NCBI GenBank assembly: GCA_002451015.1
Contig: DKBB01000263.1
Location: 1-32,713 of the forward strand
Origin: Acidobacteria bacterium UBA6911
GTDB lineage: Bacteria; Acidobacteriota; UBA6911
DNA: 32,713 nucleotides
Reading direction: 5' to 3'
The notes under the pieces were generated by a model that saw only the letters and a list, made by a program, of their open reading frames with translations, was not told where the DNA came from and searched no databases. Shown piece by piece: positions 10,858 to 26,637 of the stretch; position 1 is the stretch's first letter, and every line of letters starts with the position of its first letter. The position numbers were made by a program, and so were the translations under genes.

Positions 10858-10859
10858 GA

Positions 10860-14783: not shown

Positions 14784-15481
14784 ATAGGTTCCCCTTCCTT
14801 GCCGAGTGCAACAGCCAGTCTGCTTCCCGCGTCCGCCGGCCAGTGCCAGCCCAGTTCCGATATAAGCTGGACTCCGGGCAGTAGAATTGCGTGGGTCAGT
14901 TTGGTCAGGGGGATCAGAACCATAACCAGGTTGGCACTCATGACATGAATGAATAAAACGGCGGAATAGGAAAATGGATTGAATCCCGGGTGCATGACCA
15001 GAAAGCCGGAGAGGAAGGGCAGGGCAATGATCGGCGGCAGCACAAAGTCCTGGGGCCGTGACAGCACACGGGTCGATTTGGCCGACAGCCTTTGTATAAC
15101 CAGCGCCACGGCTGTAACGACCGCTGTGATCGTAAGTATGTCCGCCAGCGTATTGGGGATGGCGGGCCAGGACAATCCAGTGCCCCGGAGCCAAAGGACG
15201 ACGTGACCGGCCAGAAAGAGCGGTACGATCAGAATGGCTATATGAAATATCATGGAGGTCAGGCTGAACAGGGGATTCTGCCGTATCCTTCCTGCAGGTA
15301 CAATCCATTGGAGAGTACTTCGCCAGATCTTGTATAACGGCAGGGTTTTGTCGCCGGCCCGGTGCCAGGTTTTGTAAATGTCCCAGAGAGTCAGTGCCAA
15401 ATGTCGAACCAGGCCGAGAATCATGAAAGAAAATGAGAAAACGAAGGCCGGGCCTCTTGCCCATTCAAGCCAGTGTTCCAT
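14780..15481 (-). CDS. NarI/DsrM/HmcE-like cytochrome b membrane subunit
   Basis: The 233-residue protein has about five to six membrane helices. Histidines in helices, H80 and H93 (MIFHIAILIVPLFLAGHVV) and further His residues in FIHVMSANLVMVLIPLTKLTHAILLP, are candidates for two haem b ligand pairs as in NarI, DsrM, TmcC and HmcE. It follows the HdrD-like gene by one base (TAAGATG), which supports ATG 15481; an earlier in-frame codon at 15505 would overlap the upstream gene. It should form the membrane module that passes electrons between quinol and the cytoplasmic Fe-S subunit. Confidence 0.88.
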   Translation of the reverse strand: MEHWLEWARGPAFVFSFSFMILGLVRHLALTLWDIYKTWHRAGDKTLPLYKIWRSTLQWIVPAGRIRQNPLFSLTSMIFHIAILIVPLFLAGHVVLWLRGTGLSWPAIPNTLADILTITAVVTAVALVIQRLSAKSTRVLSRPQDFVLPPIIALPFLSGFLVMHPGFNPFSYSAVLFIHVMSANLVMVLIPLTKLTHAILLPGVQLISELGWHWPADAGSRLAVALGKEGEPI

Positions 15482-15482
15482 C

Positions 15483-16835
15483 TTACGCCCCTTTACTGAA
15501 ATCAATTACTTTCAATAGAAGATCGTGCAACCCGACCACCTGGACATTGTCCAGCCCGTTGTCCTGGCACACCTCACGCAACTGTTTTTTGCAGTTTGCG
15601 CAGGGAGCGACGAGATACTTGGCCCCCGTTTCGCGGATCTGGTCCGCTTTGCGTTTTCCCAGCGGTCCGGTGCGGAATGCCCGAATCTCATCGATTGAGA
15701 CGGTTCCCCCGCCTCCTCCACAACAGTAGTTTTCGGTCCTGTTGGGGGTCATTTCGACGAAGTCACTGCAAATGGAGTGAAGTATTTCGCGCGGTTCCTC
15801 CGTGATGCGGCCTGCCCTTGCGATATTGCAGGGATCGTGATAAGTCATGCGTTCCAGGATTTTTTCGTTCCTGAGGGGTATCTTGCCGGCTTCAAGCTGA
15901 GCCCAGGTATACTGCATGCAGTTTACGACAGGGGGGGCATCCGGGCCGCAGAAGGTCGGGATGAACCACGCACTGCGCGTCGCATGGCCGCATTCGCCCA
16001 CTAGGACTTTCTTGCCCCGTAGACGGCGAACCTCCCCGGTTACGTTATTCACGATCCGCTCCATCATGCGGTCACTGTAAAAAAGTCCGTAGTTGATACC
16101 GTCATAGTTGCCGCTTCCGATCGTCCATGAGCCGCCCGTGACGTGCATGACCGCCGCGTTTCCCATGAGCGTATCCGCTTCGAGCAGGTAGTCGGAGACT
16201 GCAGGAAAGAAAACGTATTCTGCCCCTGCAACATCAATAGGGAATTTGGCCTTCACCTGATAGAGTTCTTCAAGTTCTTCCTCCAAAAACTCACAGGTGT
16301 CCCGGAGCGCCGGGACCGGAATAGCGGAAGTATTGCCCACACCGTCGAGTTGCTCTCGCACCGCTACGAGAAGGGCTTTGGGTATCACGTTGATTTCCGC
16401 CAGCAGCCAGCGTGATAAATGGGTGATCAATCCATGGTCAATTCCCATGGGGCAGGTGGATTTGCAGCGTCGGCAGGCCGTACAGCGATAAAATGACTCC
16501 GCCATTTCGTCCAGGTAATCATCGGTGAGGGTGAAACCGCTTCCCAGCCTGGCTAGCAGAATCCCGGCATGTGTAAAATAGCGACGGTAAATGCGAAGCA
16601 ACAGTTCGGAGCGGTGGCAGGGTATATCCCGGTCTTCTCCGGTTGACTGATGCAGTTGACAGGCGGCGGCGCAACGGCTGCACTTTGTGGAAATTCGCGC
16701 ATACACGTCCAGTGGCAGCGCATAGTTGGAATGTTCGAGAACGGCTGCAAATGCCTCCAGAAACTTTCCAGCCCGGTTTTCCTCAATTTGCGAACTGTCC
16801 TCAACATAGTAGCTGTACTTGCTTTGTACGTTCAT
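15483..16835 (-). CDS. HdrD-like Fe-S protein (DsrK/HmcF/TmcB type)
   Basis: The 450-residue protein has two N-terminal Fe-S sites, C52/C55/C59 with C73 and the classical C118/C121/C124/C128 (CTACRRCKSTCPMG). A C-terminal half follows with the CCG signature: DPCNIARAG, ENYCCGGGGG and APCANCKKQL. In HdrD and DsrK this CCG set binds a special [4Fe-4S] centre that reduces a disulfide. A complete first CCG repeat is not visible; only GECGHA remains near residue 265-300. It is soluble and should sit on the cytoplasmic side of the cytochrome b. Together with the next three genes it makes a compact Hmc/Dsr/Tmc-like complex. Its substrate (for example a DsrC-like thiol protein) is not encoded in the window. 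Confidence 0.9.
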   Translation of the reverse strand: MNVQSKYSYYVEDSSQIEENRAGKFLEAFAAVLEHSNYALPLDVYARISTKCSRCAAACQLHQSTGEDRDIPCHRSELLLRIYRRYFTHAGILLARLGSGFTLTDDYLDEMAESFYRCTACRRCKSTCPMGIDHGLITHLSRWLLAEINVIPKALLVAVREQLDGVGNTSAIPVPALRDTCEFLEEELEELYQVKAKFPIDVAGAEYVFFPAVSDYLLEADTLMGNAAVMHVTGGSWTIGSGNYDGINYGLFYSDRMMERIVNNVTGEVRRLRGKKVLVGECGHATRSAWFIPTFCGPDAPPVVNCMQYTWAQLEAGKIPLRNEKILERMTYHDPCNIARAGRITEEPREILHSICSDFVEMTPNRTENYCCGGGGGTVSIDEIRAFRTGPLGKRKADQIRETGAKYLVAPCANCKKQLREVCQDNGLDNVQVVGLHDLLLKVIDFSKGA

Positions 16836-16852
16836 GAATCGGTGATCCCTTC

Positions 16853-17209
16853 TTATAACGTCTCGGCGGATCCGGTTGCCGGCGTTCCGGGTCGATCCGA
16901 CCCGGGTGCCAGCTTGTCCTGGAGGAAGCGATGCAGAACATCGGTTGTTTTCCCGGAAACCCAGGAAATGACACGGATGCCCGAAGCCGTCAGGAGTCCC
17001 TCATGGGCGTCCAGGATTCCGCTGCAGATCAGGACCGAAACTTCCTGGTCCCGCAGGAGCCGGATACGATCGAATTCCTCTTCACTCCTGAGGGTGAAAT
17101 CATCCTGGGCAAACACCCTGTTATTACGAATTTCGTATATTGTGATACTTGACGAATATTCGAAACAGGGTGTCACTTCCCCTTCATGATGTGGAATTGC
17201 CACTTTCAT
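16853..17209 (-). CDS. NifX/NafY-fold cofactor-binding-type protein (first gene of redox operon)
   Basis: The 118-residue protein begins MKVAIPHHEGEVTPCFEYSSS, the start pattern of the dinitrogenase iron-molybdenum cofactor family (PF02579), and continues with VSVLICSGILDAHEGLLTASGIRVISWVSGKTTDVLHRFLQDKL. It is shorter than NifB C-terminal domains and has no nitrogenase gene near it. Such orphan members are thought to carry or sense metal clusters. It is closest in look to the protein at 26257-26637 (MKVAIPLWQGRVSPVFDEAS). It lies directly downstream of a sigma54 promoter at 17237-17252 and 17 bases upstream of the HdrD-like gene, so it leads the respiratory operon. Confidence 0.85.
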   Translation of the reverse strand: MKVAIPHHEGEVTPCFEYSSSITIYEIRNNRVFAQDDFTLRSEEEFDRIRLLRDQEVSVLICSGILDAHEGLLTASGIRVISWVSGKTTDVLHRFLQDKLAPGSDRPGTPATGSAETL

Positions 17210-17236
17210 GTACTTTCCCCTTCGGCCTGCATACAG

Positions 17237-17252
17237 TGCAAATACGGTGCCA
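17237..17252 (-). promoter_or_regulatory. sigma54 promoter P1 of the respiratory operon
   Basis: On the minus strand the sequence reads TGGCACCGTATTTGCA, matching TGGCAC-N5-TTGCW with the invariant GG and GC at the right spacing. The predicted start is near 17226, about 17 bases before the NifX-like ATG at 17209. An inverted repeat (17337-17357) lies about 120 bases upstream, the usual place for an activator site. Confidence 0.85.
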
Positions 17253-17336
17253 ATGAAAGTGAAATCTGTAATGGGCTTTTAATAATAGGGATAGGGAGTA
17301 TCGACGGCTTTCCCGATAGCGGCAGGCATAACAGAA

Positions 17337-17357
17337 TTGAAACAGGTGCTGTTTCAA
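17337..17357. promoter_or_regulatory. inverted repeat TTGAAAC-N7-GTTTCAA, candidate activator site
   Basis: Perfect seven-base arms (17337-17343 and 17351-17357) are separated by seven bases, and a third half-site, TGTTTCAG, follows directly. The repeat sits about 120 bases upstream of P1, a typical upstream activating sequence position. The same half-sites form the repeat at 18981-18996 at the activator gene. Confidence 0.6.
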
Positions 17358-17489
17358 TGTTTCAGTTCTGCAACCGTCGGCCGTGTCTCTGAAGTGCAAC
17401 CGGACAAATGAAAGAAATTTGGATATGTCCACATGGGAATAAGGATTCCAATAGCGGCACGAAGCTTTTTTCTTGCGAACATAATGGAA

Positions 17490-18926
17490 TTAAATATTCG
17501 TTCCCGGTTTTTCAATCGAGTAACGTTTCATCTTGCGCCAGAGGGTTGTCCTGCTCACTTTGAGATCCAGTGCTGTCCGTATTAAGTCATAGTTGTTGCG
17601 GCGCAATGCCGTCTGGACGGCATCGGCTTCGGCCCACTTGAGTCGCGATATGGTTTTTGAGGGCGTTGATTCGACAGGTGCCGGTGGAAGATTTTGGAAT
17701 TCTTCGGGGAGATGGCGAACGCCGATCTGCGGATCATGGCAGAGGACGAAGGCGTACTCAATAAGATTTTCCAATTCCCTTACGTTGCCGGTAAATGCAT
17801 GCCGCATGATCCGCTCCATGCATTCCGGCGTCGCCCCGGAGATGTTCTTGCCCCGTTTGGCATTGAACTTGGCTATGAAATGGTCCACAAGATAGGGGAT
17901 GTCTTCCCTGCGTTCGTTCAAGGATGGAACTGAGAGGCGCACTACCGCAAGACGAAAATAAAGATCGTCCCTGAACCTGCCGCTGCTGACGAGTTCCGCC
18001 AGTCTTGAATTTGTCGCTGCGACCACGCGCACGTTGCTGCGGACGGATTTCACCGAACCCAGCGGTTCGTATTCCCGTTCCTGAAGCACGCGGAGCAATT
18101 TGACCTGTGTGGCGGGCGACAGTTCGGATACTTCATCCAGGAATAATGTGCCGCCCTCGGCCAGGGCCAGGCGGCCGGCTTTATTGCGTTTGGCGTCTGT
18201 AAAAGCCCCCTGAGCGTAGCCGAACAACTCGGATTCGAAAAGTGATTCCGGAAGCGCCCCGCAGTTGACGGCAACGAGCGGTTTGCGCCGCCTGAGGCTG
18301 AAACTGTGCACGGCCCGTGCCAGTAGTTCCTTGCCGGATCCGCTCGGACCTTCAATTAATACGGTCGCATCGCTTTCCGCGATATCGGGAAGAATGGCGA
18401 ATATTTTGCGCATCCCCTTGCTTTTGCCGACGATGTCTTCAAAAGTGTACTGCTGTGAGATTTCCCTGCGAAGCTGTTCGAGTGCCGAAAGGTCCCGAAA
18501 GGTCTCAACCGCGCCTAAAAGGTTGCCGCCCGAGTCTTTAAGCAGGGCAGTGCTCAAACTGATTGGAACGGAATGTCCCTTGTTGTTGAGAATCCTTGCG
18601 GGAACGTCGATGTTCTCGCGTCCCGACTCCAGTGTCCTCTGGAGGGCGCACCTTTGCTCGCAGACATCGGCGTGAAATACATCGCGGCATTTCTTGCCGA
18701 TTGCCTCCATCGCCGAAATTCCTGTTATACGCTCGGCGGCCCTGTTAAAAGACGTTACGCGCCAGTTCTGGTCGACGGTAAAAACCCCGTCCGCCACGGA
18801 TCCGAGGATAGTTTCCAGAAATCTTTTATCCAGTTCGGTCTTCATCTGTTTCATGTATTGAGTCTTTCCGTTCGATATTCGTTTCCATTTCGTGTGCGGG
18901 CTAAAGGAATTATTCATGTCCACCAT
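17490..18926 (-). CDS. PAS-AAA+-HTH sigma54-dependent transcription activator
   Basis: The 478-residue protein has a PAS domain (about 35-150), an AAA+ domain with Walker A GPSGSGKE (193-200), the sigma54-contact loop GAFTDA (240-245), Walker B LFLDEVSE (261-268) and the R-finger region FRDDLYFRLAV, and a Fis-type HTH at the C terminus (DLIRTALDLKVSRTTLWRKMKRY). It has no receiver domain, so it senses a ligand directly through the PAS. The PAS carries C80, C89 and C93 (KKCRDVF...VCEQRCAL), a likely redox, haem or Fe-S site. ATG 18917 or ATG 18854 (after GGAAAG) may be the true start, since the longest frame lacks a good ribosome site. It is the obvious candidate to drive P1-P6. Confidence 0.92.
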   Translation of the reverse strand: MVDMNNSFSPHTKWKRISNGKTQYMKQMKTELDKRFLETILGSVADGVFTVDQNWRVTSFNRAAERITGISAMEAIGKKCRDVFHADVCEQRCALQRTLESGRENIDVPARILNNKGHSVPISLSTALLKDSGGNLLGAVETFRDLSALEQLRREISQQYTFEDIVGKSKGMRKIFAILPDIAESDATVLIEGPSGSGKELLARAVHSFSLRRRKPLVAVNCGALPESLFESELFGYAQGAFTDAKRNKAGRLALAEGGTLFLDEVSELSPATQVKLLRVLQEREYEPLGSVKSVRSNVRVVAATNSRLAELVSSGRFRDDLYFRLAVVRLSVPSLNERREDIPYLVDHFIAKFNAKRGKNISGATPECMERIMRHAFTGNVRELENLIEYAFVLCHDPQIGVRHLPEEFQNLPPAPVESTPSKTISRLKWAEADAVQTALRRNNYDLIRTALDLKVSRTTLWRKMKRYSIEKPGTNI

Positions 18927-18980
18927 TGATCTGTTCTAAAAAGCCTTTTCCCGGACCGTGTCGATCCCTTTATTTCCGAC

Positions 18981-18996
18981 GTTTCAACATTGAAAC
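18981..18996. promoter_or_regulatory. perfect inverted repeat over the activator gene start site
   Basis: GTTTCAACATTGAAAC is a perfect palindrome (seven-base arms, two-base centre). It starts just downstream of the -12 element of P2 and covers the predicted transcription start near 18990. A protein bound here should block its own promoter, which fits autorepression by the encoded activator. It shares half-sites with 17337-17357. Confidence 0.6.
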
Positions 18997-19000
18997 TGGA

Positions 19001-19016
19001 TGCACTGACCGTGCCA
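19001..19016 (-). promoter_or_regulatory. sigma54 promoter P2 of the activator gene
   Basis: The minus strand reads TGGCACGGTCAGTGCA: a perfect -24 half (TGGCACG) and GTGCA in place of TTGCA at -12, spacing 16. The start is predicted near 18990, 65-135 bases before the coding region depending on the start codon used. Confidence 0.75.
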
Positions 19017-19248
19017 TAGCGAAAATCTGGCAAAGCTGTTGATAATAAATCCGATAGGGGGAGGCAGCATGAAGCAGGCGTAGTGTGTTCATTGCAGAAT
19101 GCAATGAAATTGCATCCAAAACCACTTAAAGTGCAATTCTATGAGGGGATTCAATGTTCCAACGGTTGGAATATGATTTTTCTCTAAAACAGGAGCAGGT
19201 TTTGAGAATGAAAGCGGAAAACTCAAATCCTGCGTTCGCAGAATTTCC
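19017..19248. other. intergenic region with palindromes
   Basis: No gene is supported here. TTGCA motifs overlap in inverted arrangement at 19091-19115 (ATTGCA, ATGCAAT, ATTGCAT) and another TGCAATT is at 19132-19138. TTCCAAC-G-GTTGGAA (19157-19171) is a perfect inverted repeat about 170 bases upstream of P2's start and could be an activator site for it. A stem TTTGAG/CTCAAA (about 19200-19226) follows the stop of the C_GCAxxG gene but lacks a convincing T-run. Confidence 0.45.
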
Positions 19249-19881
19249 TTATTCCTGCAGATTTTCAATAATAATTTCAGCCGCGATGCGCACGCCGATT
19301 CCGGGGACGAGGCTGCACTTTTCGAAGCCCTTGGCCTGTTCGAATGCCTGCATGTTTTCCGGACTTGCCGCAGGATCCATGTATCGGCCAAAAACCACAT
19401 TTTCCTGGATTTTGGGACACGTTACCGCACCGACTTCCTTTTCAAATCGGGGCATGAACTGGCGGGTAATCCCGATGCTGGCACGCACGCCTTCTTCATT
19501 CAAAAGGTCGTTGCTGCCGAATAGGAGTCCGAAACTTATCAGGCTGCCGGTGACGGCACCGCACATCCAGCCGGTGCCGCCGAATCCCGGAAACGGGGAC
19601 AGGGCCTGGACTGTTGCCAAGTTGCCGAGACCGAATTCTTCCATAAGTGCCAGGGCGGTGCTTTTAGCGCAATTTCTCAAGACATAGTTGTATTCCTCCG
19701 CCCTGCGCTGTACGCGCTCAAGGATTTCCATGCGGTTGAATGTCAGTACATCCCGGTTCAATGCCTTCGACGGGATTCCGTTTGCCATAAGGTCTTTGCA
19801 GCGGCTTTCGATTGCGTCAAGATCCCATTTCCTTTCCACCAGTTCCCGCAGCTTTGATTCGAGTGTCGGAGTATCCACCAT
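19249..19881 (-). CDS. C_GCAxxG_C_C family redox-type protein
   Basis: The 210-residue protein belongs to the C_GCAxxG_C_C family (PF09719): Cys71 (RNCAKSTA), the core MCGAVTGSLISFGLLFG with Cys107, and downstream Cys155 and Cys189, giving the C-GCA-C-C spacing that names the family. The function is not known; members are predicted redox-active and are common in anaerobes. Start ATG 19881 is preferred over the TTG at 19902 because AAGGG lies 6 bases upstream. It is 26 bases downstream of the ATC-hydrolase-like gene and shares its sigma54 promoter. No signal peptide is seen. Confidence 0.85.
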   Translation of the reverse strand: MVDTPTLESKLRELVERKWDLDAIESRCKDLMANGIPSKALNRDVLTFNRMEILERVQRRAEEYNYVLRNCAKSTALALMEEFGLGNLATVQALSPFPGFGGTGWMCGAVTGSLISFGLLFGSNDLLNEEGVRASIGITRQFMPRFEKEVGAVTCPKIQENVVFGRYMDPAASPENMQAFEQAKGFEKCSLVPGIGVRIAAEIIIENLQE

Positions 19882-19907
19882 AGTCTGCCCTTTCCTTTTC
19901 AACGACT

Positions 19908-20378
19908 CTACTTTTTTACTTCAATTATATGTTCGCAGCATCCGTCCCCCGCAGGTAAGGACTTGCCGATCCTGTATGTCAGGCGGGGATTCAGTGTTTC
20001 AACGACGGTCCGCTCCATGGTTGTATGCGCCTGGCACATGTCCGGATTGTCGAAATCGAGGGGGCACCGGTTGACCCGAACGATAATGCGGTCTTTGCTT
20101 TCCTCAACCGTGGAAACCAGGTCTTGGCCGCGGGCGACAGTATCGAAAATGCGAAGCAGGTACCCTGCAACGGATTCCAGATCGGTTTTCTCCAGTCTGG
20201 ATTTCGCTCTTTCGGCAACACTGAGACCGTATTCACGGCTCATGTCCGCAATCAGTTTGAGTCCGTCGTCTCCGAATTTTCGATATATGAAATCATAATT
20301 GCTTCTCAACCTGGCGTACAGCCCGCTGACTGCACTTCGATAGACCTGTTCGATGGTACGGGTGTTTTTGTTTTTCAT
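19908..20378 (-). CDS. ATC-hydrolase-like (L-2-amino-thiazoline-4-carboxylate hydrolase family) protein
   Basis: The 156-residue protein has the layout of PF14196: a helical N-terminal half (YARLRSNYDFIYRKFGDDGLKLIADMSREYGLSVAERA), then RVNRCPLDFDNPDMCQAHTTMERTVVETLNPRLTYRIGKSLPAGDGCCEHIIEV. Conserved cysteines C105, C115 and C147/C148 suggest metal or thiol binding; a V4R-like sensor fold is an alternative. The true substrate is unknown, and the family name comes from one characterised thiazoline hydrolase. Start 20378 is chosen over an in-frame ATG at 20450 because AGGA lies 6 bases upstream and P3 (20446-20461) would otherwise overlap the coding region. Confidence 0.75.
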   Translation of the reverse strand: MKNKNTRTIEQVYRSAVSGLYARLRSNYDFIYRKFGDDGLKLIADMSREYGLSVAERAKSRLEKTDLESVAGYLLRIFDTVARGQDLVSTVEESKDRIIVRVNRCPLDFDNPDMCQAHTTMERTVVETLNPRLTYRIGKSLPAGDGCCEHIIEVKK

Positions 20379-20445
20379 GCTATTCCTGTCTCCCCCTGTC
20401 GCTACATCATGCAACTTTTGAATAAAATTTACGACAGAAACTATC

Positions 20446-20461
20446 AGCAACTGACGTGCCA
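20446..20461 (-). promoter_or_regulatory. sigma54 promoter P3 (ATC-hydrolase-like/C_GCAxxG operon)
   Basis: The minus strand reads TGGCACGTCAGTTGCT, a full match to TGGCACRNNNNTTGCW. The start is predicted near 20434, giving a 55-base leader before ATG 20378. It is divergent from P4, 260 bases away. Confidence 0.9.
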
Positions 20462-20719
20462 GTATTCCGCCTTCGCCTAGCCGAGGCAGAGATTCGGCCG
20501 CGTTTCAGCGGACAGGTCGGTGGACAGATCGGCGTACAAGTTGCCCGGCAGGCCGCCATCCCGCCGACATTTGGGAAACAGCCAGCAATAGGAATGGGCG
20601 GCTTTAGAAATTGATGTTGTGGCATTTTGCAACCGTAGGATATGCGGCACTGGGCTAAAGTGTCTTCTAAGTGCCCTGATTGCACCGTTTGATTGATTAT
20701 TCGCTGTATGCAAGCCCAT
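20462..20719. other. shared divergent regulatory region between P3 and P4
   Basis: No gene is supported between the two sigma54 promoters. GTTTCAG and GGGAAAC half-sites similar to those at 17337 and 18981 occur about 70 bases apart but do not form a tight palindrome. GTTG-N10-CAAC occurs at about 20617-20634. The activator binding site here is not identifiable with confidence. Confidence 0.4.
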
Positions 20720-20735
20720 TGGAACTGAATTTGCA
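20720..20735 (+). promoter_or_regulatory. sigma54 promoter P4 (DUF5320 gene)
   Basis: TGGAACTGAATTTGCA matches the -24/-12 consensus except A for C at one -24 position. The start is predicted near 20746, 60 bases before ATG 20809. Confidence 0.75.
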
Positions 20736-20808
20736 ACAAAAATAAGAAAGTATTCAGAAAGGAATTTTGAATATTAAATTTTTAATCAATGCGAAGGAGT
20801 AAGTAAAA

Positions 20809-21198
20809 ATGCCAAGAGGAGACAGATCCGGGCCTGGGGGTATGGGCCCGAGAAGCGGGCGCGCAGCAGGATACTGCGCAAATTATGATGCGCCCGGTTT
20901 CATGAATCGGTTTATCGGCGGTGGCTTCGGTCGAGTTGCCGGTATGAGATACGGACGGGGCTTTGGCCAAAACAGGGGATTCGGCAACCGCGGAAGAGGC
21001 TTCGGTCTGAGGAGTATGTTCCGTGATTCCGGTCTGCCGGGTTGGATGCGCTTCGGCCGGTATTTCGGACAGGGGCCGAATCCGGATCCCGGTATGGAGA
21101 AGCAGGTGCTCAAAAACCGGATGGAGGTACTCAAATCAGAGTTGGACCAAATCCAAAGCAGGCTGAATGATCTTGAGTCCACGGCATCGGACCAATGA
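20809..21198 (+). CDS. DUF5320 family Gly/Arg/Phe-rich small protein
   Basis: The 129-residue protein starts MPRGDRSGPGGMGPRSGRAA, the hallmark N terminus of DUF5320, followed by a low-complexity FGR/GFG segment (residues 30-75) and a C-terminal coiled coil (MEKQVLKNRMEVLKSELDQIQSRLNDLES). The function is unknown. Family members lie next to MinD/ferredoxin ATPases and NifX-like proteins in many anaerobes, exactly as here. GAAGGAG lies upstream of the start, and the gene has its own sigma54 promoter. It converges with the ZIP transporter gene. Confidence 0.88.
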   Translation: MPRGDRSGPGGMGPRSGRAAGYCANYDAPGFMNRFIGGGFGRVAGMRYGRGFGQNRGFGNRGRGFGLRSMFRDSGLPGWMRFGRYFGQGPNPDPGMEKQVLKNRMEVLKSELDQIQSRLNDLESTASDQ

Positions 21199-21227
21199 TT
21201 TAATGGATCTCGTGGGGGGATTGCGGG

Positions 21228-21965
21228 CTAGTCGTGATGAAAAAGTACGATAGTTCCGATTCCCAACGCAATCAGGAGCAGTTCCCATGCAAGACTTCCC
21301 GGACCTCCCGAAGCTCTGCGCCCGGGGATGAGGTCCGCCAGGGCAATATAGATGAAACCGGATGCGGAGATGGACAGAAAATAGGGGACGGATGACAGGA
21401 GAAATGGCATAAGCAGGTAGGTCGCCAAGGCTCCCGTGACAGCTGTAAGGCTGGAGATCGTATTGAATAAAAGGGCTTTTGATTTTGAATAGCCGCTCTC
21501 GAGCAGTATTGCGAAATCGCCGATTTCCTGTGGAACCTCGTGGGCGATGACGGCTACCGATGTCGTGATTCCGAGTGATATCGAACTTGTAAAGGCGACT
21601 GCGATAGCTATCCCGTCCACAAAATTGTGGAGGGAATCCCCGAACAGTATCAGTGTTCCTGCCCGCGTATGGATATCGCAGGGCTCTTCATGGCAGTGCC
21701 GCCACAGGGCGAACTTTTCAAGCATGAAAAAGAGTATCAATCCTCCTAGAACGAACGGGTAAATACTTTTGCCGGTTAACTGTTCCTGCGCCTGGGGAAT
21801 CATCCCGAAAAATGCCGCTCCCAGAAGAGTCCCGATTGCATAAGGGATCAAGGCGGAAGTAAGCATATGTATCTGGCGCTTCCTGAATAGAAGCAGAAAG
21901 GCTGCCAGTCCCACCGAGCAGATAGATCCGAGAAGTGTAAAGCTAAGAATATAAAGAACAATCAT
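21228..21965 (-). CDS. ZIP-family metal transporter
   Basis: The 245-residue protein has about eight membrane helices and the two ZIP metal-site helices HNFVDGIAIAVAF (from His113) and HEVPQEIGDFAILL (from His142), with a His/Cys-rich loop between helices 3 and 4 (WRHCHEEPCDIH). It should move divalent metal (Zn, Fe or similar) across the inner membrane; the direction and metal are not decidable. ATG 21965 is preferred to TTG 22010, although neither has a strong ribosome site. It follows the second MinD gene by 91 bases and may be the last gene of the P5 operon, which would link metal supply to the cluster-handling proteins upstream. Confidence 0.88.
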   Translation of the reverse strand: MIVLYILSFTLLGSICSVGLAAFLLLFRKRQIHMLTSALIPYAIGTLLGAAFFGMIPQAQEQLTGKSIYPFVLGGLILFFMLEKFALWRHCHEEPCDIHTRAGTLILFGDSLHNFVDGIAIAVAFTSSISLGITTSVAVIAHEVPQEIGDFAILLESGYSKSKALLFNTISSLTAVTGALATYLLMPFLLSSVPYFLSISASGFIYIALADLIPGRRASGGPGSLAWELLLIALGIGTIVLFHHD

Positions 21966-22056
21966 CGTATCGCCGGCATTTTCCCGGTTCCCCTCGAAAT
22001 GCCTGTTCAAACAACGGGCCGTCGTTTCTTGTCCGTAGAGTGCAGGGGGATACGGG

Positions 22057-22968
22057 TTAGACCTGTATCACCGAAGCTGCTTCTATCGATTCCATTTGTT
22101 GTTGAATATTCTGCCAGATTTTACGGATGTCCCGTGCCGCCGCTCCGCCGTATTCCACAACCGGAATCCCCTTGATTTGCGCGGCGGTCACCGAACGGTC
22201 GAACCCGATCTTGCCGGCGAACGAGGCGCCGGCCGACAGGGCGTCCCGTTCGATTTCGCCGGCAAGACGGGGGTTGAGATCCCACTTGTTGACGCATACG
22301 AGAGTTGGAATATTGAAGTGTTTCGTCAGTGAAAGGACCCTTTCCATGTCGTGAACGCCCGACAGAGTCGGTTCTACGACCACGAAAGCCAGGGATGCTC
22401 CTGTAAGGGATGCGATCACGGGACATGCAATACCTGGAGGACCATCGACGATTATCCAAGGGATTTTTCTTTTTCCCGAAATTTGGCGGGCTTCGTTCTT
22501 AACCGTGCTGACAAGTTTGCCGGAATTCTCCGCGCCTATTGCCAGGCGCGCATGCACCATGGGGCCGTAGCGGGTCTCAGAGACCAGCCATTGGCCACAA
22601 GTCCGCTCCGGAAAGTCGATGGCCTCTTCAGGGCAGAAATGGACACAGACGCCGCAGCCTTCGCAGGAAAAAGGATCAATCGTAAAAAGGGACTGTCGCC
22701 CGTAGCGGCGAGTTTCGTGGACTGCATGAAAACGGCATTTTTCTTTGCAGACGCCACAGGCCGTGCAGTCGTCTTTTCGTATCACCGCTTCATGACCGCT
22801 CTTAAAATTTTCCAGTCTTTCAGTCACGGGGGACAGAACGAGGTGCAGATCCGAGGCATCGACATCGCAGTCCGCAATTACGGATGTGCCGTTCAGGGAA
22901 GCGAATGAAGCGGTCAGGCTCGTTTTCCCCGTGCCTCCCTTGCCGCTTATGACCACCATTTCTTTCAT
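22057..22968 (-). CDS. MinD/ParA-type ATPase with inserted ferredoxin domain (second copy)
   Basis: The 303-residue protein has a deviant Walker A (GKGGTGKT at 9-16), the DCDVDASDLH switch, an inserted 2x[4Fe-4S] ferredoxin domain with C68/71/74/78 and C102/105/108/112, and the P-loop continuation IIVDGPPGIACPVIASLTGAS and LVCVNKWDLN. This is the Mrp-related MinD/ferredoxin ATPase family that comes in tandem pairs in anaerobes, with a proposed but unproven role in Fe-S or metallocofactor handling. ATG 22968 overlaps the stop of the first copy (ATGA). The pair is diverged, so probably forms a heterodimer. Confidence 0.92.
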   Translation of the reverse strand: MKEMVVISGKGGTGKTSLTASFASLNGTSVIADCDVDASDLHLVLSPVTERLENFKSGHEAVIRKDDCTACGVCKEKCRFHAVHETRRYGRQSLFTIDPFSCEGCGVCVHFCPEEAIDFPERTCGQWLVSETRYGPMVHARLAIGAENSGKLVSTVKNEARQISGKRKIPWIIVDGPPGIACPVIASLTGASLAFVVVEPTLSGVHDMERVLSLTKHFNIPTLVCVNKWDLNPRLAGEIERDALSAGASFAGKIGFDRSVTAAQIKGIPVVEYGGAAARDIRKIWQNIQQQMESIEAASVIQV

Positions 22969-23852
22969 GCTATGCCCTCGGGATCCCCGCTGGTTTTTGG
23001 CATCGATGGCCTGCATGGACGGGATTCCGATAGAATGTGCTCGTCAAGGCTCTTGAACAATTCCTCGAAGCCGGGAACCGAGTCGACCAACAGTCGTCCC
23101 TGTGAATATGCTTCCGCCGCTTTGCGGTCATCCGGGATTTCCAGCAAAATCGGTATCTGTTCTTTTCGGCAGAAATCGGCAACGCTGTGGTCCAGAGAAC
23201 TGACCCGGTTAATCACAACGCCGAAATTAAGATCCAGCGTGCGCATAGTTTCCACTGCCAGTTCCAGGTCGTGCAGTCCGAAAGGAGAAGACTCCGAAAC
23301 CAGCACCACATAGTCACTCTTATTGACCGCTGCGATAACCGGGCATGAGGTCCCGGGCGGACAGTCAATTACAGTCATGCCGTTTATGCTTGTATGCTGC
23401 TTGATCGCGCGTATTAAAGGAGGGGACAGCGACTGGCCGACATCCAGGATGCCCTGAACGAATTCAATGTGATCCCGGGTCCCGATATTGATCGTGCCTA
23501 TTTCTCTTCTGCCTTCAGTAATGGCTTTTTCCGGACAGACTTCGACACATCCGCCACACCCATGGCACAGCTCCGGGAAAACGAACGGTTTCGATTTCAA
23601 TGAAACGATGGCGTTGTATCGGCATATCCGGCTGCATTCGCCGCAACCGTTGCATCTCTTATCGTCGACTCTGGGGAACGGGAGAGTGAAACGCTCGGTA
23701 GAGTCGATCTCCGGATTCAGAAAGATGTGACAATTGGGTTCTTCCACATCACAGTCCAGCAAATGCACCGCTCCCTGTTGAACCGCAGCGAGGTTTAACG
23801 CGACTGTAGTTTTGCCTGTACCGCCTTTGCCGGAAGCAACCGCCAGAATCAT
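22965..23852 (-). CDS. MinD/ParA-type ATPase with inserted ferredoxin domain (first copy)
   Basis: The 295-residue protein has Walker A GKGGTGKT (8-15), DCDVEEPNCHIFL, two [4Fe-4S] cysteine sets (C67/70/73/77 and C96/99/102/106), then VIDCPPGTSCPVIAAVNKSDYVVLVSESSPFGLHDL and FGVVINRV. It is the partner of the next gene in the tandem pair. The C-terminal 20 residues (SESRPCRPSMPKTSGDPEG) are probably disordered. Both ends overlap neighbours by ATGA (the NifX-like gene before it, the second copy after it), a tightly coupled operon. Confidence 0.92.
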   Translation of the reverse strand: MILAVASGKGGTGKTTVALNLAAVQQGAVHLLDCDVEEPNCHIFLNPEIDSTERFTLPFPRVDDKRCNGCGECSRICRYNAIVSLKSKPFVFPELCHGCGGCVEVCPEKAITEGRREIGTINIGTRDHIEFVQGILDVGQSLSPPLIRAIKQHTSINGMTVIDCPPGTSCPVIAAVNKSDYVVLVSESSPFGLHDLELAVETMRTLDLNFGVVINRVSSLDHSVADFCRKEQIPILLEIPDDRKAAEAYSQGRLLVDSVPGFEELFKSLDEHILSESRPCRPSMPKTSGDPEGIA

Positions 23853-24214
23853 TTCCAGTGCCCTGTCACGTCAGAAGAATTCGTTGCATTGAGCTGACCG
23901 GACCGGTATTTGTCCACGGCCTGGGAAACGGATAATCCTTCCGCACCAGTAAAAACTTCGATACCGGCGGCTTTCAGGGTGCTGAAAGCCTTGGGCCCGC
24001 AATGTCCCGTGATCAATATCCGGGCCCCATGTTTGGATATGGTTTCCGCCGCCTTGATTCCCGCTCCCTGTGCTGCATCCAGGCTTTGTGAGTTGGAAAC
24101 CACTTCATAGGAGTAGGTATTGGTATCATAAATAAGGAATTGTGCTGCCCTGCCGAAGCGGGGATCCACTGCCGAATCCGGGCTCGATCCCTGGGAACTA
24201 ATTGAGATTTTCAT
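23849..24214 (-). CDS. NifX/NafY-fold protein (second paralog)
   Basis: The 121-residue protein is a full PF02579 domain: MKISISSQGSSPDSAVDPRFGRAAQFLIYD, then AAQGAGIKAAETISKHGARILITGHCGPKAFSTLKAAGIEVFTG. The TGHCGPKA loop is typical of the MTH1175-like subgroup. It follows the 49-residue gene by a one-base overlap (TAATG) and overlaps the first MinD gene by ATGA. Its place directly ahead of the MinD/ferredoxin pair supports a role as cluster carrier or sensor for them. It differs clearly from the two MKVAIP-type paralogs in the window. Confidence 0.92.
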   Translation of the reverse strand: MKISISSQGSSPDSAVDPRFGRAAQFLIYDTNTYSYEVVSNSQSLDAAQGAGIKAAETISKHGARILITGHCGPKAFSTLKAAGIEVFTGAEGLSVSQAVDKYRSGQLNATNSSDVTGHWK

Positions 24215-24363
24215 TATTGCTCCATCCTGTAGTCTTTGATTTCAATGTTGTCCTGCCCGCCGGTTGTATCGGGGAATGTAGAGAACGCGGATAACAGTTG
24301 ATCCGATTCGCCCTGCAACAGGGAGGAAATCGAAGTGCCGATGTCGAGCGCATATGTCGTCAT
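24214..24363 (-). CDS. 49-residue protein of unknown function
   Basis: The product (MTTYALDIGTSISSLLQGES, then DQLLSAFSTFPDTTGGQDNI and EIKDYRMEQ) has no recognised domain, no signal peptide and no cysteine. Its ATG shares ATGA with the stop of the zinc-ribbon gene and its stop overlaps the NifX-like start (TAATG), so it is translated within the operon if at all. Those overlaps are the only support for it being a gene. Confidence 0.55.
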   Translation of the reverse strand: MTTYALDIGTSISSLLQGESDQLLSAFSTFPDTTGGQDNIEIKDYRMEQ

Positions 24364-24554
24364 TCCCGTATCATGCGGGTCCCACATTGCGGGCACTGCT
24401 TGTTCCTGCACGGCATTCCGGGTGAATGCGGTTCAGTGTAATGACACTTCGGGCACAGGCAGTTGCCTCCGGGAACACTCTGAATATCTGAATTGTCCTG
24501 TCCGGATCTGCCTTGAAATATCCGGCCGACCCCTCTTTGTGCTCTTCTTTTCAT
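24360..24554 (-). CDS. small zinc-ribbon protein of MinD/NifX clusters
   Basis: The 64-residue protein has a Gly/Arg-rich start (MKRRAQRGVGRIFQGRSGQD) and a C-terminal ribbon NCLCPKCHYTEPHSPGMPC and CPQCGTRMIRE, the CPxCG...PHxxGxPCxxxxCPxCG pattern of the small proteins found beside MinD/ferredoxin ATPases. ATG 24554 is preferred since AGGA lies about 8 bases upstream; a longer in-frame start at 24626 would run through the palindrome at 24580-24611. It is the first gene of the P5 operon, with a leader of about 220 bases. Confidence 0.8.
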   Translation of the reverse strand: MKRRAQRGVGRIFQGRSGQDNSDIQSVPGGNCLCPKCHYTEPHSPGMPCRNKQCPQCGTRMIRE

Positions 24555-24579
24555 TGTTTTGTCCTGTACTTTCCTTAAT

Positions 24580-24611
24580 GGATTCCGGGACCAAGCTTCG
24601 TCCCGGAATCC
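24580..24611. repeat. 32-base near-perfect palindrome in the P5 leader
   Basis: Arms GGATTCCGGGAC (24580-24591) and GTCCCGGAATCC (24600-24611) pair perfectly over 12 bases around the loop CAAGCTTC, whose AAGCTT is itself palindromic. There is no T-run after it in either direction, so it is not a terminator. It looks like a REP-type mobile palindrome or a leader hairpin that could control translation of the zinc-ribbon gene 25 bases downstream. No second copy is seen in the window. Confidence 0.75.
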
Positions 24612-24787
24612 AAATTGGCGCGGCAAAGCTTCTACATTTCCCTGCCGGAGTTGATCTTCCGAATACCGGTATAGGCGCCGTAGTTTAATGTTCCTGCATT
24701 AGCACCCTCTACCACCGCATCGCAGCCGAATTCTCTCGGTGCATGCGGGTAGTAACCGGGAAATGCGATCTTCGCAATAAGGAATTA

Positions 24788-24803
24788 AGCAGGTTTCGTG
24801 CCA
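24788..24803 (-). promoter_or_regulatory. sigma54 promoter P5 (zinc ribbon-NifX-MinD-MinD operon)
   Basis: The minus strand reads TGGCACGAAACCTGCT; -24 is perfect and -12 is CTGC instead of TTGC. The start is predicted near 24776. TTTCATGAAA (24860-24869), a perfect palindrome of the TTTCA half-site, lies about 90 bases upstream. Confidence 0.75.
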
Positions 24804-25033
24804 GGTTGAATAAAGCCTTGTATTCACCTGGTATACGGCTGAAAATTTGGACCCGGTTGTTTCATGAAAAGAAATTTGTTGCAAAGCGCAATACATTCTT
24901 TGATTTATCTGTGGCAATTTGCAAACTTGTCGCTTTCCTCATCCTGTGAAGGGGCGTGCCTTTCACGAATTTATAACGAAATTCCCACAAAAACGGAGCG
25001 TGTCGGACCTTCATGATCGCCTGCCAGGAAGGC
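24804..25033. other. shared divergent regulatory region between P5 and P6
   Basis: No gene is supported here. Candidate activator sites are TTTCATGAAA (24860-24869) and the broken repeat GTGAA-N11-TTCAC (24946-24966), which lies about 104 bases upstream of the P6 start. A TGGCAATTTGC at 24912-24922 resembles a sigma54 element but its spacing is too short. Confidence 0.45.
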
Positions 25034-25049
25034 TGGCACGATCCTTGCC
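25034..25049 (+). promoter_or_regulatory. sigma54 promoter P6 (Mrp-NifX operon)
   Basis: TGGCACGATCCTTGCC agrees with TGGCACRNNNNTTGC throughout. The start is predicted near 25060, giving a leader of about 48 bases before ATG 25108. Confidence 0.9.
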
Positions 25050-25107
25050 TTTATCTACGCGTGCTGGCAGTTTAAGAAAACGATGGCCTATCGGAAGGAA
25101 TGTGAAA

Positions 25108-26187
25108 ATGGCTACTGAAAAACAAATCAGAAAATTGTTGTCCAAGGTTCGGGATCCCGAAAATAATAAAAATATTATTGAGCTTGGAATGGTCCGCAAT
25201 CTGAAAGTTAATGCGGATACAGTATCTTTTACCTTGGCTATGAGCAGCCTCTCACATCGGTTCAAAGACAAAATCGTGTGCGATGCGAAGTCGGCGGTCC
25301 AATCCGTGGACGGTATTCAAGCGGTGGAAATCTTTTTGGCGGAGATGGCTCCGGCGGAAAAAGCCTCCCGGCAGAAGGAGGCTGGTTTGAAGGGTGAAGC
25401 GGAACGATTCAATAATGTGAAACATGTGATCGCAATCATGAGCGGTAAGGGAGGCGTCGGGAAATCTCTTGTAACCGGGCTCCTGGCCGGCAGTTTGCGC
25501 CGCTTTGGTTACCGGGTGGGTGTGCTGGATGCGGACATCACAGGCCCCAGCATTCCCAAGATGTTCCTGCCTGAAGGAGCCCTGCTTGATTTCAGCCCAA
25601 AAGTAATGCTGCCGGTCAAAACACGTACGGGTATTTCAGTCATATCCATCAATCTTTTTCTGGAGAGTGAAGACCAGGCTGTGATATGGCGCGGACCTTT
25701 GATCAGCAATACCATCCGGCAGTTCTGGAGCGATGTGCTCTGGGGGGACCTGGATTACCTGTTAGTGGATCTGCCGCCCGGAACCTCGGACGCTTCTCTG
25801 ACGGTATTGCAGTCGCTGCCGATGAGCGGCGTCGTATTGGTGACGTCACCGCAGAGCCTGGCTGCAATGGTCGTGCGCAAAGCCGCCGGAATGATACGGC
25901 AGGTTGGAATTCCAATATTGGGCCTGGTGGAAAATATGAGTTATTTCGTGTGTCCCGATACCGGAGTGCACCACAGGATTTTCGGTCCCAGCGATTCTGA
26001 AGCTATGGCACGTCAACTCAACATGACTTTTCTGGGGTGCCTGCCTATTGACCCGGCGGTTTCGGCTTTATGCGATCGAGGAGAAATTGAAAGCTGCCCG
26101 GGGGATCTGTTCGACTCCGTATCGCAGCGAATCGTCAAAATCGCCCCGGCGGCTGATGCACCGAAGATGGCCCGGCGGGCGTCTTAA
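25108..26187 (+). CDS. Mrp/ApbC-type P-loop ATPase with MIP18 domain
   Basis: The 359-residue protein has an N-terminal MIP18/DUF59 domain (1-80), a linker, and the Mrp/NBP35 ATPase: Walker A GKGGVGKS (113-120), VGVLDADITGPSIPKMF, LLVDLPPGTSDASLTVLQSLP and ENMSYFVCPDTG. Mrp proteins are Fe-S cluster carriers or assembly factors. The usual bridging CxxC reads CPDT here, so only one of the two cluster cysteines remains at that site. ATG 25108 is chosen because AAGGAA precedes it and P6 is just upstream; the open frame extends back to 24919 through the promoter. It is followed by a NifX-like gene after 69 bases. Confidence 0.92.
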   Translation: MATEKQIRKLLSKVRDPENNKNIIELGMVRNLKVNADTVSFTLAMSSLSHRFKDKIVCDAKSAVQSVDGIQAVEIFLAEMAPAEKASRQKEAGLKGEAERFNNVKHVIAIMSGKGGVGKSLVTGLLAGSLRRFGYRVGVLDADITGPSIPKMFLPEGALLDFSPKVMLPVKTRTGISVISINLFLESEDQAVIWRGPLISNTIRQFWSDVLWGDLDYLLVDLPPGTSDASLTVLQSLPMSGVVLVTSPQSLAAMVVRKAAGMIRQVGIPILGLVENMSYFVCPDTGVHHRIFGPSDSEAMARQLNMTFLGCLPIDPAVSALCDRGEIESCPGDLFDSVSQRIVKIAPAADAPKMARRAS

Positions 26188-26256
26188 CCGGAATCGGAAG
26201 GTATAAACCTTAAATTATTCGGTCATCTGCTTGATAAACAGACACTGGCTGTAAAT

Positions 26257-26637
26257 ATGAAAGTCGCGATTCCGTTATGGCAGGGACGTGTCTCGCCCGT
26301 CTTCGATGAGGCGAGCAGAATTCTTATCGTCGATATTTCCGAGGGCAAGGAAAAATCGCGACAGGAAGAATCGCTCCTCATGCGCAGTCCGTTCGAACGG
26401 GCTCGAGCGCTTCCAAGCCTGGGAGTGAATTTGTTGATCTGCGGAATGATTTCTCACGCACAGCAAACGGCACTGGATTCGGCCGGGATTAAAACTATTC
26501 CTCACATTTGTGGGCATATGGAAGATGTCATCGCTGCGTTTCTTGACGGGCGAATAGAGAGAGGGGCGATGTTAATGCCCGGGTGCGGTCGCCGAAAAAG
26601 ATCCCGGCATTACATGAACAGGAGAGTTAAAAGGTAG
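26257..26637 (+). CDS. NifX/NafY-fold protein (third paralog)
   Basis: The 126-residue protein (MKVAIPLWQGRVSPVFDEAS at the start; LGVNLLICGMISHAQQTALD in the middle) is another orphan PF02579 member. Its C-terminal tail MPGCGRRKRSRHYMNRRVKR is very basic, with one cysteine, and could touch nucleic acid or an acidic partner. It is closer to the 16853-17209 copy than to the 23849-24214 copy. It is probably cotranscribed with the Mrp gene from P6, and the operon ends at the terminator at 26768-26800. Confidence 0.88.
   Translation: MKVAIPLWQGRVSPVFDEASRILIVDISEGKEKSRQEESLLMRSPFERARALPSLGVNLLICGMISHAQQTALDSAGIKTIPHICGHMEDVIAAFLDGRIERGAMLMPGCGRRKRSRHYMNRRVKR

What the first reader, a model, noticed from the sequence alone, without database searches (positions are those of the whole stretch)
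16853..26637. Self-contained sigma54 regulon around a redox complex and cofactor-handling genes
Six -24/-12 elements with correct spacing stand directly before genes: 17237-17252(-), 19001-19016(-), 20446-20461(-), 20720-20735(+), 24788-24803(-) and 25034-25049(+). A PAS-type sigma54 activator lies among them. Three are full or nearly full matches to TGGCACRNNNNTTGCW. The regulated genes (Hmc/Dsr-like complex, three NifX-like proteins, paired MinD/ferredoxin ATPases, Mrp, ATC-hydrolase-like, C_GCAxxG, DUF5320, possibly ZIP) form a coherent set. I know of no described system with this composition; that it is undescribed is inference.
Basis: partly seen in the sequence, partly recalled or inferred. 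Interest (0 to 1): 0.9.

Follow-up and report, generated by a model that had tools for sequence, protein, structure and literature searches.

The report
Sigma54-driven ORP and redox operons
A bacterium, probably an acidobacterium, appears to switch on two neighbouring gene sets through one special class of promoter: a variant of the known "orange protein" metal-cofactor system, and a membrane electron-transfer complex that comes with its own switch protein.

Summary
In detail: all six -24/-12 sites are at the stated places (1 exact, 4 with one mismatch, 1 with two); six in the intergenic DNA compare with 0.22 expected. A seventh lies before a DUF169 gene (30272). The core (NifX_b-MinD1-MinD2 divergent from Mrp-NifX_c) is the ORP ("orange protein") system described in Desulfovibrio vulgaris, so "no described system" is wrong; NifX_b's best solved-structure match is ORP itself. 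Here it is a variant: MrpORP is split into two genes and its Mrp half lacks CXXC. The Hmc/Dsr-like operon is a second, separable module: the string activator-NifX-DsrK-HmcE-HmcB-(NrfD+cytochrome c)-kinase-two receivers stands in a planctomycete without ORP genes in the 18 kb read. Two box types suggest two layers: TKGC-N5-GCAA boxes for the ORP-side promoters and the activator gene, a GTTTC/GAAAC palindrome for the redox operon. "Self-contained" is unproven: four of five close relatives keep another activator beside MinD2 that the window lacks there, and no whole genome is held for the window.

The parts
17237..17252 (-). sigma54 -24/-12 site TGGCACCGTATTTGCA before NifX_a and the redox operon
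   Evidence: 1 mismatch; leader of about 17 nt if transcription starts 12 bases after the GC
19001..19016 (-). sigma54 site TGGCACGGTCAGTGCA before the activator gene
   Evidence: 1 mismatch
20446..20461 (-). sigma54 site TGGCACGTCAGTTGCT before ATCh-C_GCAxxG
   Evidence: exact match; TGGAACGTAAGTTGCT in L001
20720..20735 (+). sigma54 site TGGAACTGAATTTGCA before DUF5320
   Evidence: 2 mismatches; TGGAACTGTATTTGCA in L001
24788..24803 (-). sigma54 site TGGCACGAAACCTGCT before small Zn-ribbon ORF-NifX_b-MinD1-MinD2
   Evidence: 1 mismatch; counterpart in L001 and L002
25034..25049 (+). sigma54 site TGGCACGATCCTTGCC before Mrp-NifX_c
   Evidence: 1 mismatch; counterpart in L001 and L002
30272..30287 (+). 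seventh sigma54-like site TGGCAGAGTATTTGCT before DUF169 (outside the finding)
   Evidence: 1 mismatch; in L003 and L071 the only sites assigned to DUF169 have 2 mismatches and lie about 1 kb away
17336..17358 (.). palindrome ATTGAAACAGgtgCTGTTTCAAT, candidate activator box of the redox operon (overlaps CTGTTTCAATGTTTCAG, 17349-17365)
   Evidence: 10-base perfect arms, 83 bases above the -24 element; CTGTTTC-N(1-4)-GTTTCAG occurs once in the window and in 1 of 154 loci, L153
18981..18996 (.). palindrome GTTTCAACATTGAAAC over the predicted start of transcription of the activator gene; candidate autoregulatory box
   Evidence: start inferred as 12 bases after the GC of -12
19088..19108 (.). TTCATTGCAGAATGCAATGAA, holds a TTGC-N5-GCAA box, 71 bases above the activator's promoter
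   Evidence: 9-base perfect arms
20620..20632 (.). TGGCATTTTGCAA box between the ATCh and DUF5320 promoters
24879..24891 (.). TTGCAAAGCGCAA box between the NifX_b and Mrp promoters
   Evidence: TTGCAAAGTGCAA in L001, altered in L002
24912..24924 (.). TGGCAATTTGCAA box between the NifX_b and Mrp promoters
   Evidence: kept with changes in L001 and L002
9868..10281 (-). receiver-only response regulator RR2
   Evidence: PF00072
10330..10857 (-). receiver response regulator RR1
   Evidence: PF00072
10860..11981 (-). sensor histidine kinase
   Evidence: NCBIfam AtoS-like 164.7 bits, below cut-off
11971..13992 (-). HmcC/NrfD membrane subunit fused to a class III-type cytochrome c
   Evidence: PF03916 + PF02085; 6 CxxCH
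13992..14753 (-). HmcB-like ferredoxin subunit (span analysed; the start lies some codons further up)
   Evidence: NF045715 228 bits, cut-off 420
14780..15505 (-). HmcE/TmcC-like membrane anchor
   Evidence: NF045723 125.7 bits, cut-off 240
15483..16835 (-). DsrK/TmcB/HmcF-like CCG iron-sulfur subunit
   Evidence: NF045796 268 bits, cut-off 400
16853..17209 (-). NifX_a (Nitro_FeMo-Co family)
   Evidence: PF02579 28.1 bits, cut-off 26.3
17490..18926 (-). PAS-AAA-HTH sigma54 activator, GAFTDA, PAS C-X8-C-X3-C; homologues of about 452 aa suggest the start at 18854
19249..19902 (-). C_GCAxxG_C_C redox protein (start uncertain)
   Evidence: PF09719 56.1 bits
19908..20378 (-). ATC-hydrolase-like protein (ATCh)
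   Evidence: PF14196 19.7 bits, below cut-off
20809..21198 (+). DUF5320 protein
   Evidence: PF17253 80.8 bits
21228..22010 (-). ZIP metal transporter (start uncertain)
   Evidence: PF02535 119.9 bits
22057..22971 (-). MinD2, ParA/MinD ATPase with two 4Fe-4S motifs (Orp3/Orp4 type)
22965..23852 (-). MinD1, ParA/MinD ATPase with two 4Fe-4S motifs (Orp3/Orp4 type)
23849..24214 (-). NifX_b, orange-protein (ORP/Orp8) homologue
   Evidence: PDB 2wfb 'ORP' E 1.8e-27
24360..24554 (-).
   Evidence: relatives in 11 loci, 9 of them read; fused to NifX in L040 and L049
25108..26187 (+). Mrp with FeS_assembly_P domain, CXXC absent (CPDTG)
26257..26637 (+). NifX_c, the Di-Nase half of a split MrpORP
   Evidence: NF041136 31.6 bits over 265-364

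Best explanation
Two sigma54-controlled modules stand side by side. Module 2 (19249-26637) is a variant of the ORP system: divergent operons NifX_b-MinD1-MinD2(-ZIP) and Mrp-NifX_c, with satellite operons ATCh-C_GCAxxG and DUF5320. Sigma54-RNA polymerase at their -24/-12 sites is activated from TKGC-N5-GCAA boxes 75-158 bases upstream, and the products load and move Fe-S or metal-sulfide cofactors. Module 1 (9868-18926) is a redox module: a PAS activator with a C-X8-C-X3-C triad drives NifX_a, an Hmc/Tmc-like complex (DsrK-type subunit, two membrane subunits, ferredoxin subunit, tethered cytochrome c) and a kinase with two receivers, from a GTTTC/GAAAC palindrome, and may limit its own gene through a like palindrome at its start. 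A TTGC box above the activator gene would make module 1 follow module 2's regulator. Shown: sites, boxes, gene families, separability. Inferred: which activator reads which box, the signal (redox, metal or Fe-S at the triad), which side of the membrane each subunit faces, transcription itself.
For: Sites. ORP identity. Module 1 whole and collinear in L153, a genome drawn from the planctomycete phylum: EBP 70%, NifX_a 49%, DsrK 76%, HmcE 61%, HmcB 64%, HmcC-cytochrome 54%, HK 63%, RR1 66%, RR2 60%, sigma54-like site with 2 mismatches before NifX_a. DsrK-to-kinase genes beside a related EBP, no NifX_a detected, in L121, L122, L123, L126. Ten genomes of other ORP loci: none has the HmcC-cytochrome protein at E 1e-60. 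TKGC-N5-GCAA: 4 of 8 window places lie in 1,579 intergenic bases, shuffle mean 0.18, 0 of 3,000 as high; same box above 7 of 9 EBP-B genes read. GTTTC box shared by the window and L153 alone among 154 loci. Recognition helix SRTTLWRK in 41 of 45 homologues of the window's EBP at 70% identity or more, unlike types A and B.
Against: The TTGC boxes could be read by the window's own activator: its gene carries one. The GTTTC box was chosen after seeing it, lies before NifX_a in the window but before the EBP gene in L153, and L153 has no exact TTGAAAC. The L153 promoter is a poor match (2 mismatches). Strict IHF sites are at chance level. EBP-B genes in L143 and L144 lack the TTGC box. L120, whose DsrK is closest (78%), has neither EBP nor sigma54 site before the operon. 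No genome is held for the window, so an EBP-A or EBP-B in it is unseen.
Confidence: 0.6

Rival explanations
1. One-activator regulon: the PAS activator at 17490-18926 binds the TKGC-N5-GCAA boxes and drives all six promoters, ORP side and redox operon alike.
For: Four TTGC boxes serve five of six promoters, its own included. EBP-B, among the nearest lines by identity (54-56%), mostly has the same box above its own gene (7 of 9). No other sigma54 activator appeared among the window genes that I scanned.
Against: Its recognition helix differs from that of EBP-B (SRTTLWRK against NPSTLYRK/DPSTLYRK). No TTGC dyad stands before the redox operon. L001 and, altered, L002 keep the TTGC blocks between the NifX_b and Mrp promoters, yet no nearer relative of this activator than 54% turned up in those two genomes. 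L153 has the activator with its redox operon, without ORP genes in the 18 kb read and without such a dyad.
Confidence: 0.3
2. The sites are real but the redox operon is mainly transcribed from another, housekeeping promoter; sigma54 control concerns only NifX_a and the ORP side.
For: The closest redox operon by DsrK, L120 (78%), is preceded by an ArsR-looking gene and has no such site before it.
Against: NifX_a to RR2 is one strand with gaps of at most 48 bases and several overlaps, and the order is kept in L153. One-mismatch sigma54 sites precede the redox genes in L121, L123 and L126, though not in L122.
Confidence: 0.08
3. Chance matches to a short consensus.
For: One one-mismatch site lies inside coding DNA (18307), so such matches do arise.
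Against: 6 intergenic sites against 0.217 expected, and counterparts of four in relatives.
Confidence: 0.02

Closest known systems
ORP (orange protein) system of Desulfovibrio vulgaris Hildenborough, DVU2103-DVU2109
   Same: Orange-protein NifX homologue, two MinD-type ATPases with two 4Fe-4S motifs each, Mrp and Di-Nase domains, two divergent operons with sigma54 promoters and palindromic boxes between them, GAFTDA activator
   Different: MrpORP is split into two genes and its Mrp part lacks CXXC; satellite operons (DUF5320, ATCh, C_GCAxxG, ZIP, Zn ribbon); the activator gene does not lie at the divergent promoters and is preceded by a sigma54-type site where DVU2106 has a sigma70 promoter; strict IHF sites not found. 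DVU2106's sequence was not in hand for comparison
Hmc / Tmc / DsrMKJOP / Nhc transmembrane redox complexes
   Same: CCG iron-sulfur subunit, NarI-like anchor, HmcB-like ferredoxin, NrfD subunit, cytochrome c
   Different: The NCBIfam equivalog scores fall below cut-off; cytochrome c fused to NrfD with 6 CxxCH; a NifX gene leads the operon; sigma54 activator and kinase/receivers attached
EBP-B cluster of relatives (NifX, and genes that look like DUF364, NifU, NifS)
   Same: Related activator (54-56%), TTGC-N5-GCAA box above 7 of 9 EBP-B genes
   Different: Other neighbours, named here from sequence by eye; not in the window
NrfD-cytochrome c fusions ('Ni/Fe-hydrogenase subunit HybB-like')
   Same: Same fusion: by my count 119 of the 120 hits listed carry both Pfam domains (7,944 hits among 8,000 scored candidates)
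   Different: Nothing; the fusion itself is not new

Membership tests
ORP system | Orange-protein (Orp8) homologue | tested here: met
   NifX_b to PDB 2wfb 'ORP', E 1.8e-27; PF02579 89.7 bits
ORP system | Two paralogous MinD-type ATPases each with two 4Fe-4S motifs (Orp3, Orp4) | tested here: met
   PF01656 and ferredoxin domains in both; two CxxCxxCxxxC in each
ORP system | MrpORP: Mrp NTPase fused to Di-Nase domain | tested here: not met
   Mrp 310 bits over positions 2-231 and NifX_c 31.6 bits over 265-364 of NF041136, in separate genes; cut-off 450
Mrp/NBP35 proteins | Deviant Walker A and CXXC | tested here: not met
   Walker A GKGGVGKS present, but CPDTG in place of CXXC in window, L001, L002. 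Of 50 loci aligned (some are the same place twice) 44 have CXXC; the other 6 are L001 and its copy L149, L002, L059, and L133 and L134, whose alignments do not reach it
ORP system | Two divergent operons, each with a sigma54 promoter, activator palindromes between | tested here: met
   24788(-), 25034(+), boxes at 24879 and 24912; that an activator binds them is not tested
ORP system | Cognate activator gene of the cluster | tested here: inconclusive
   An EBP (type A) stands behind MinD2 in L001, L003, L071 and L140 but not in the window or L002; the window's EBP is another line, GAFTDA like DVU2106
ORP system | IHF sites between activator box and promoter | tested here: inconclusive
   WATCARNNNNTTR: 2 in the window, 1.87 expected, neither between an ORP box and promoter; weaker sites not tested
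ORP system | Orp5 (DVU2105) homologue | not tested
   Its sequence was not in hand
ORP system | Complex formation, role in cell division | not testable with these tools
   Needs experiments
Hmc complex | Equivalog-level HmcB, HmcC, HmcE, HmcF | tested here: not met
   228/420, 316/550, 116.8/275, 190.9/750 bits against cut-offs
Hmc complex | Separate 16-heme cytochrome HmcA | tested here: not met
   Cytochrome of 6 CxxCH fused to NrfD; no other cytochrome gene seen in the operon
DsrMKJOP | DsrK at equivalog level | tested here: not met
   268 bits, cut-off 400
sigma54 promoters | GG at -24, GC at -12, fixed spacing | tested here: met
   6 of 6
sigma54 promoters | rpoN-dependent transcription | not testable with these tools
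   Needs 5' mapping and an rpoN mutant

The most novel reading that the evidence does not exclude
A mobile sigma54 redox module (cysteine-triad PAS activator, NifX protein, Hmc-like complex with tethered cytochrome, kinase and receivers), apparently shared by Acidobacteriota and Planctomycetota, has been wired under an ORP-type metal-cofactor regulon, so that the cell's cofactor status sets its transmembrane electron flow; NifX_a would deliver or sense the cofactor of that complex.
Probability: 0.2. Interest if true: 0.65.

Novelty: new variant of a known kind. Interest (0 to 1): 0.42.

Why it matters
The ORP system has been studied in Desulfovibrio, and what it is for is still open. Here ORP-type clusters with sigma54-type sites are seen in loci labelled Acidobacteriota, Thermodesulfobacteriota and Planctomycetota, in the window's clade with a split Mrp that lacks its cluster ligands, and in the window beside a redox operon whose first gene is a NifX. 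That gives direct tests of what ORP-type proteins supply, and of what the invariant PAS cysteines of this activator family sense.

Tried and rejected
Chance matches: rejected. An orthologue of the window's activator in close relatives: none better than 56% in 6 genomes; none at E 1e-158 in the 15 genomes of the order; in the 38 genomes of a class, at E 1e-152, 6 had a match, all 54-56%; none at E 1e-170 in samples of two phyla, 396 and 395 genomes, where only 4 candidates a genome were scored, so these blanks mean little. The HmcC-cytochrome protein: 6 of 9 genomes of first loci at E 1e-3, the best over the NrfD part only; 116 of 396 genomes of the first phylum at E 1e-60, of which 3 match over most of the length; 1 of 343 in the planctomycete phylum and 0 of 355 in the phylum of L004 at E 1e-180, 3 candidates a genome scored. 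The NrfD-cytochrome fusion as something new: rejected. RNA families at gathering level: none in the window. IHF sites: at chance. CAACNGTTG as a shared box: 2 in the window, 0.49 expected, reached in 11 of 100 shuffles, dropped. With 25 of 120 ATCh hits typed: 2 with the activators, 3 with HmcC. Indirect and selective; not used as an argument. Papers: DUF5320 in two unrelated papers (listing); searches for ORP with NifX/Mrp/sigma-54 gave, on this topic, only Desulfovibrio papers (listings); for Hmc/NrfD with sigma54/EBP nothing on point (listings). The 2011 ORP paper is not held; I saw it only as a reference in other papers.
Full report
Observation. The six sites are at the given coordinates. 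One is exact, four have one mismatch and one has two; all keep the GG and GC. With that core required and at most one mismatch, the window holds 7, against a mean of 0.35 and a maximum of 2 in 300 dinucleotide shuffles. Six intergenic stretches (1,736 bases) hold 6 with at most two mismatches, against 0.217 and a maximum of 4 in 2,000 shuffles. One of the 7 is in coding DNA (18307) and one stands before DUF169 (30272), outside the finding. In relatives the Mrp and NifX_b promoters have counterparts in L001 and L002, and those of ATCh and DUF5320 in L001, where the second stands before a NifX gene that precedes DUF5320.

Where the window comes from. No whole genome is held. MinD1 finds 73 loci; the closest are Acidobacteria MAGs, L001 80% and L002 78%, then a Desulfobacterales MAG, L004, at 64% and two more Acidobacteria, L003 and L071, at 63%. 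The window is therefore most likely from Acidobacteriota (inference).

What the ORP side is. NifX_b's best solved-structure match is 2wfb, named ORP, E 1.8e-27. MinD1 and MinD2 are ParA/MinD ATPases with ferredoxin domains and two CxxCxxCxxxC each. Mrp matches the NTPase half of MrpORP with 310 bits, and NifX_c the Di-Nase half with 31.6 bits (cut-off 450). This is the set of the ORP complex: Orp3, Orp4, Orp8 and Orp9, with an Orp5 that I could not test, in two divergent sigma54 operons (PMC6345978, first of seven parts and passages seen). They are activated by DVU2106 at palindromes 88 and 131 bases above the starts, with IHF (PMC3897727, first of six parts and passages seen). DVU2106 has GAFTDA (PMC4641369, passages), and so has the window's activator. 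A site with at most one mismatch within 260 bases of NifX_c, NifX_b, Mrp or ATCh stands in 17 of the 73 loci by my count's list; many loci are cut short and no shuffle control was run on that set.

How it departs. MrpORP is split. Mrp lacks CXXC (CPDTG) in the window, L001 and L002; of 50 loci aligned, 44 have it, and of the six without, two are alignments that do not reach it, one is a second copy of L001, and one is L059. Full-length MrpORP over the cut-off exists elsewhere in 3 of 6 related genomes, and in none of 14 control genomes. A 64-aa zinc-ribbon gene at 24360-24554 has relatives in 11 of the 73 loci; I read 9 of these, and in two it is fused to NifX.

The redox module. 15483-16835 is DsrK/TmcB/HmcF-like, 14780-15505 HmcE/TmcC-like, 13992-14753 HmcB-like and 11971-13992 NrfD fused to cytochrome c with 6 CxxCH, followed by a kinase and two receivers. 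No equivalog cut-off is reached for these. In L153, a genome drawn from the planctomycete phylum, the activator (70%), NifX_a (49%) and all seven further genes stand in the same order, with a two-mismatch site before NifX_a, and no ORP gene in the 18 kb read; the contig ends there. Of 11 redox loci read, five show DsrK, HmcE, HmcB and HmcC in full: L121, L122, L123 and L126 have a related activator beside them (49-51%) and no detected NifX_a, with a one-mismatch site in L121, L123 and L126 and none in L122; L120, the closest by DsrK (78%), has no site there and an ArsR-looking gene upstream. L119 and L124 are cut short, and L125, L127, L128 and L129 hold only part of the set. Conversely, 10 genomes of other ORP loci have no HmcC-cytochrome relative at E 1e-60. 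So the redox genes are separable from ORP.

The activators. In L001, L003, L071 and L140 an activator of type A stands directly behind MinD2; the window and L002 have none there. Type B (54-56% to the window's) stands near NifX and genes that look like DUF364, NifU and NifS by eye. On trees the window's protein falls with neither: it groups with L011, L014 and L017 at 96/97 and 93/89, its place is left open, and its branch is long, so its place is unsure. Cysteines 80, 89 and 93 in the PAS domain are present in 26 of 26 sequences, and the C-X8-C-X3-C pattern in 45 of 45 homologues of at least 70% identity, all 45 with GAFTDA and 41 with SRTTLWRK in the recognition helix.

The boxes. TKGC-N5-GCAA occurs at 8 places; 4 lie in the 1,579 intergenic bases before the promoters: 19092, 20620, 24879, 24912 (shuffle mean 0.182, 0 of 3,000 reach 4). 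They stand 75-158 bases above the -24 elements of five of the six promoters. The same dyad lies at or above the start of the EBP gene in 7 of 9 type B loci (found in L010, L096, L097, L098, L100, L141, L142; not in L143, L144; the pattern was looser, but every hit fits TTGC-N5-GCAA). Several type A loci show GTNGC-N6-GCAAC-like dyads by eye. Before NifX_a there is no such dyad but a 10-base-arm palindrome, one of only four perfect repeats with arms of 9 or more and gap of 8 or less in the window; a second is the TTGC palindrome above the activator, the other two are the hairpin at 24579 and one in NifX_b. TTGAAAC/GTTTCAA occurs 7 times in the window, 4 of them in the palindromes at 17336 and 18981 (shuffle mean 0.42, 0 of 3,000). 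CTGTTTC-N(1-4)-GTTTCAG occurs once in the window and in 1 of 154 loci, L153, above its activator gene. This motif was chosen after seeing both, which weakens it.

Mechanism. The best account is two layers: a TTGC-box activator for the ORP side and for the activator gene, and the window's activator for the redox operon with possible self-limitation. DVU2106 likewise limits its own gene, there at a sigma70 promoter (PMC3897727). The one-activator reading remains open at about 0.3. The signal is unknown; a redox or metal centre on the three invariant cysteines is inference.

Verdict. A real and well-placed sigma54 array; its core is a known kind (ORP) in a variant form. New here, as far as the searches go (listings only, open-licence papers), is the linked redox module with its own activator line.

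Noticed in passing
30272-30287 (+): Seventh sigma54-like site, one mismatch, about 115 bases before a DUF169 gene at 30401; a strict IHF-consensus match lies at 30248-30260.
   Followed up: partly
18307-18322 (-): One-mismatch sigma54-like site inside the activator's coding sequence.
   Followed up: no
25951-25965 (+), in Mrp: Mrp carries CPDTG where most relatives have CPxC: the CXXC cluster ligands are missing in the window, L001 and L002.
   Followed up: yes
24360-24554 (-): Small zinc-ribbon gene with relatives in 11 of 73 ORP loci, fused to NifX in L040 and L049; no Pfam match over cut-off.
   Followed up: partly
24579-24612: 13-base-arm hairpin in the long leader before NifX_b, next to a block (about 24612-24720) conserved in L001 and partly in L002; no Rfam match.
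   Followed up: partly
L126 7770-8243 (-), L123 4849-5469 (+): A small gene that looks, by eye, like a MerR/excisionase-type DNA-binding protein stands before DsrK where the window has NifX_a.
   Followed up: no
for example P0242, P0255, P0300: Activators of about 800 residues with extra PAS-type domains, about 50-56% identical to the window's, some named Thermodesulfobacteriota.
   Followed up: no
L101 (G002:C221): Kinase and receivers like those of the redox operon (41-50%) at a contig end beside a piece of an NrfD-type gene.
   Followed up: partly
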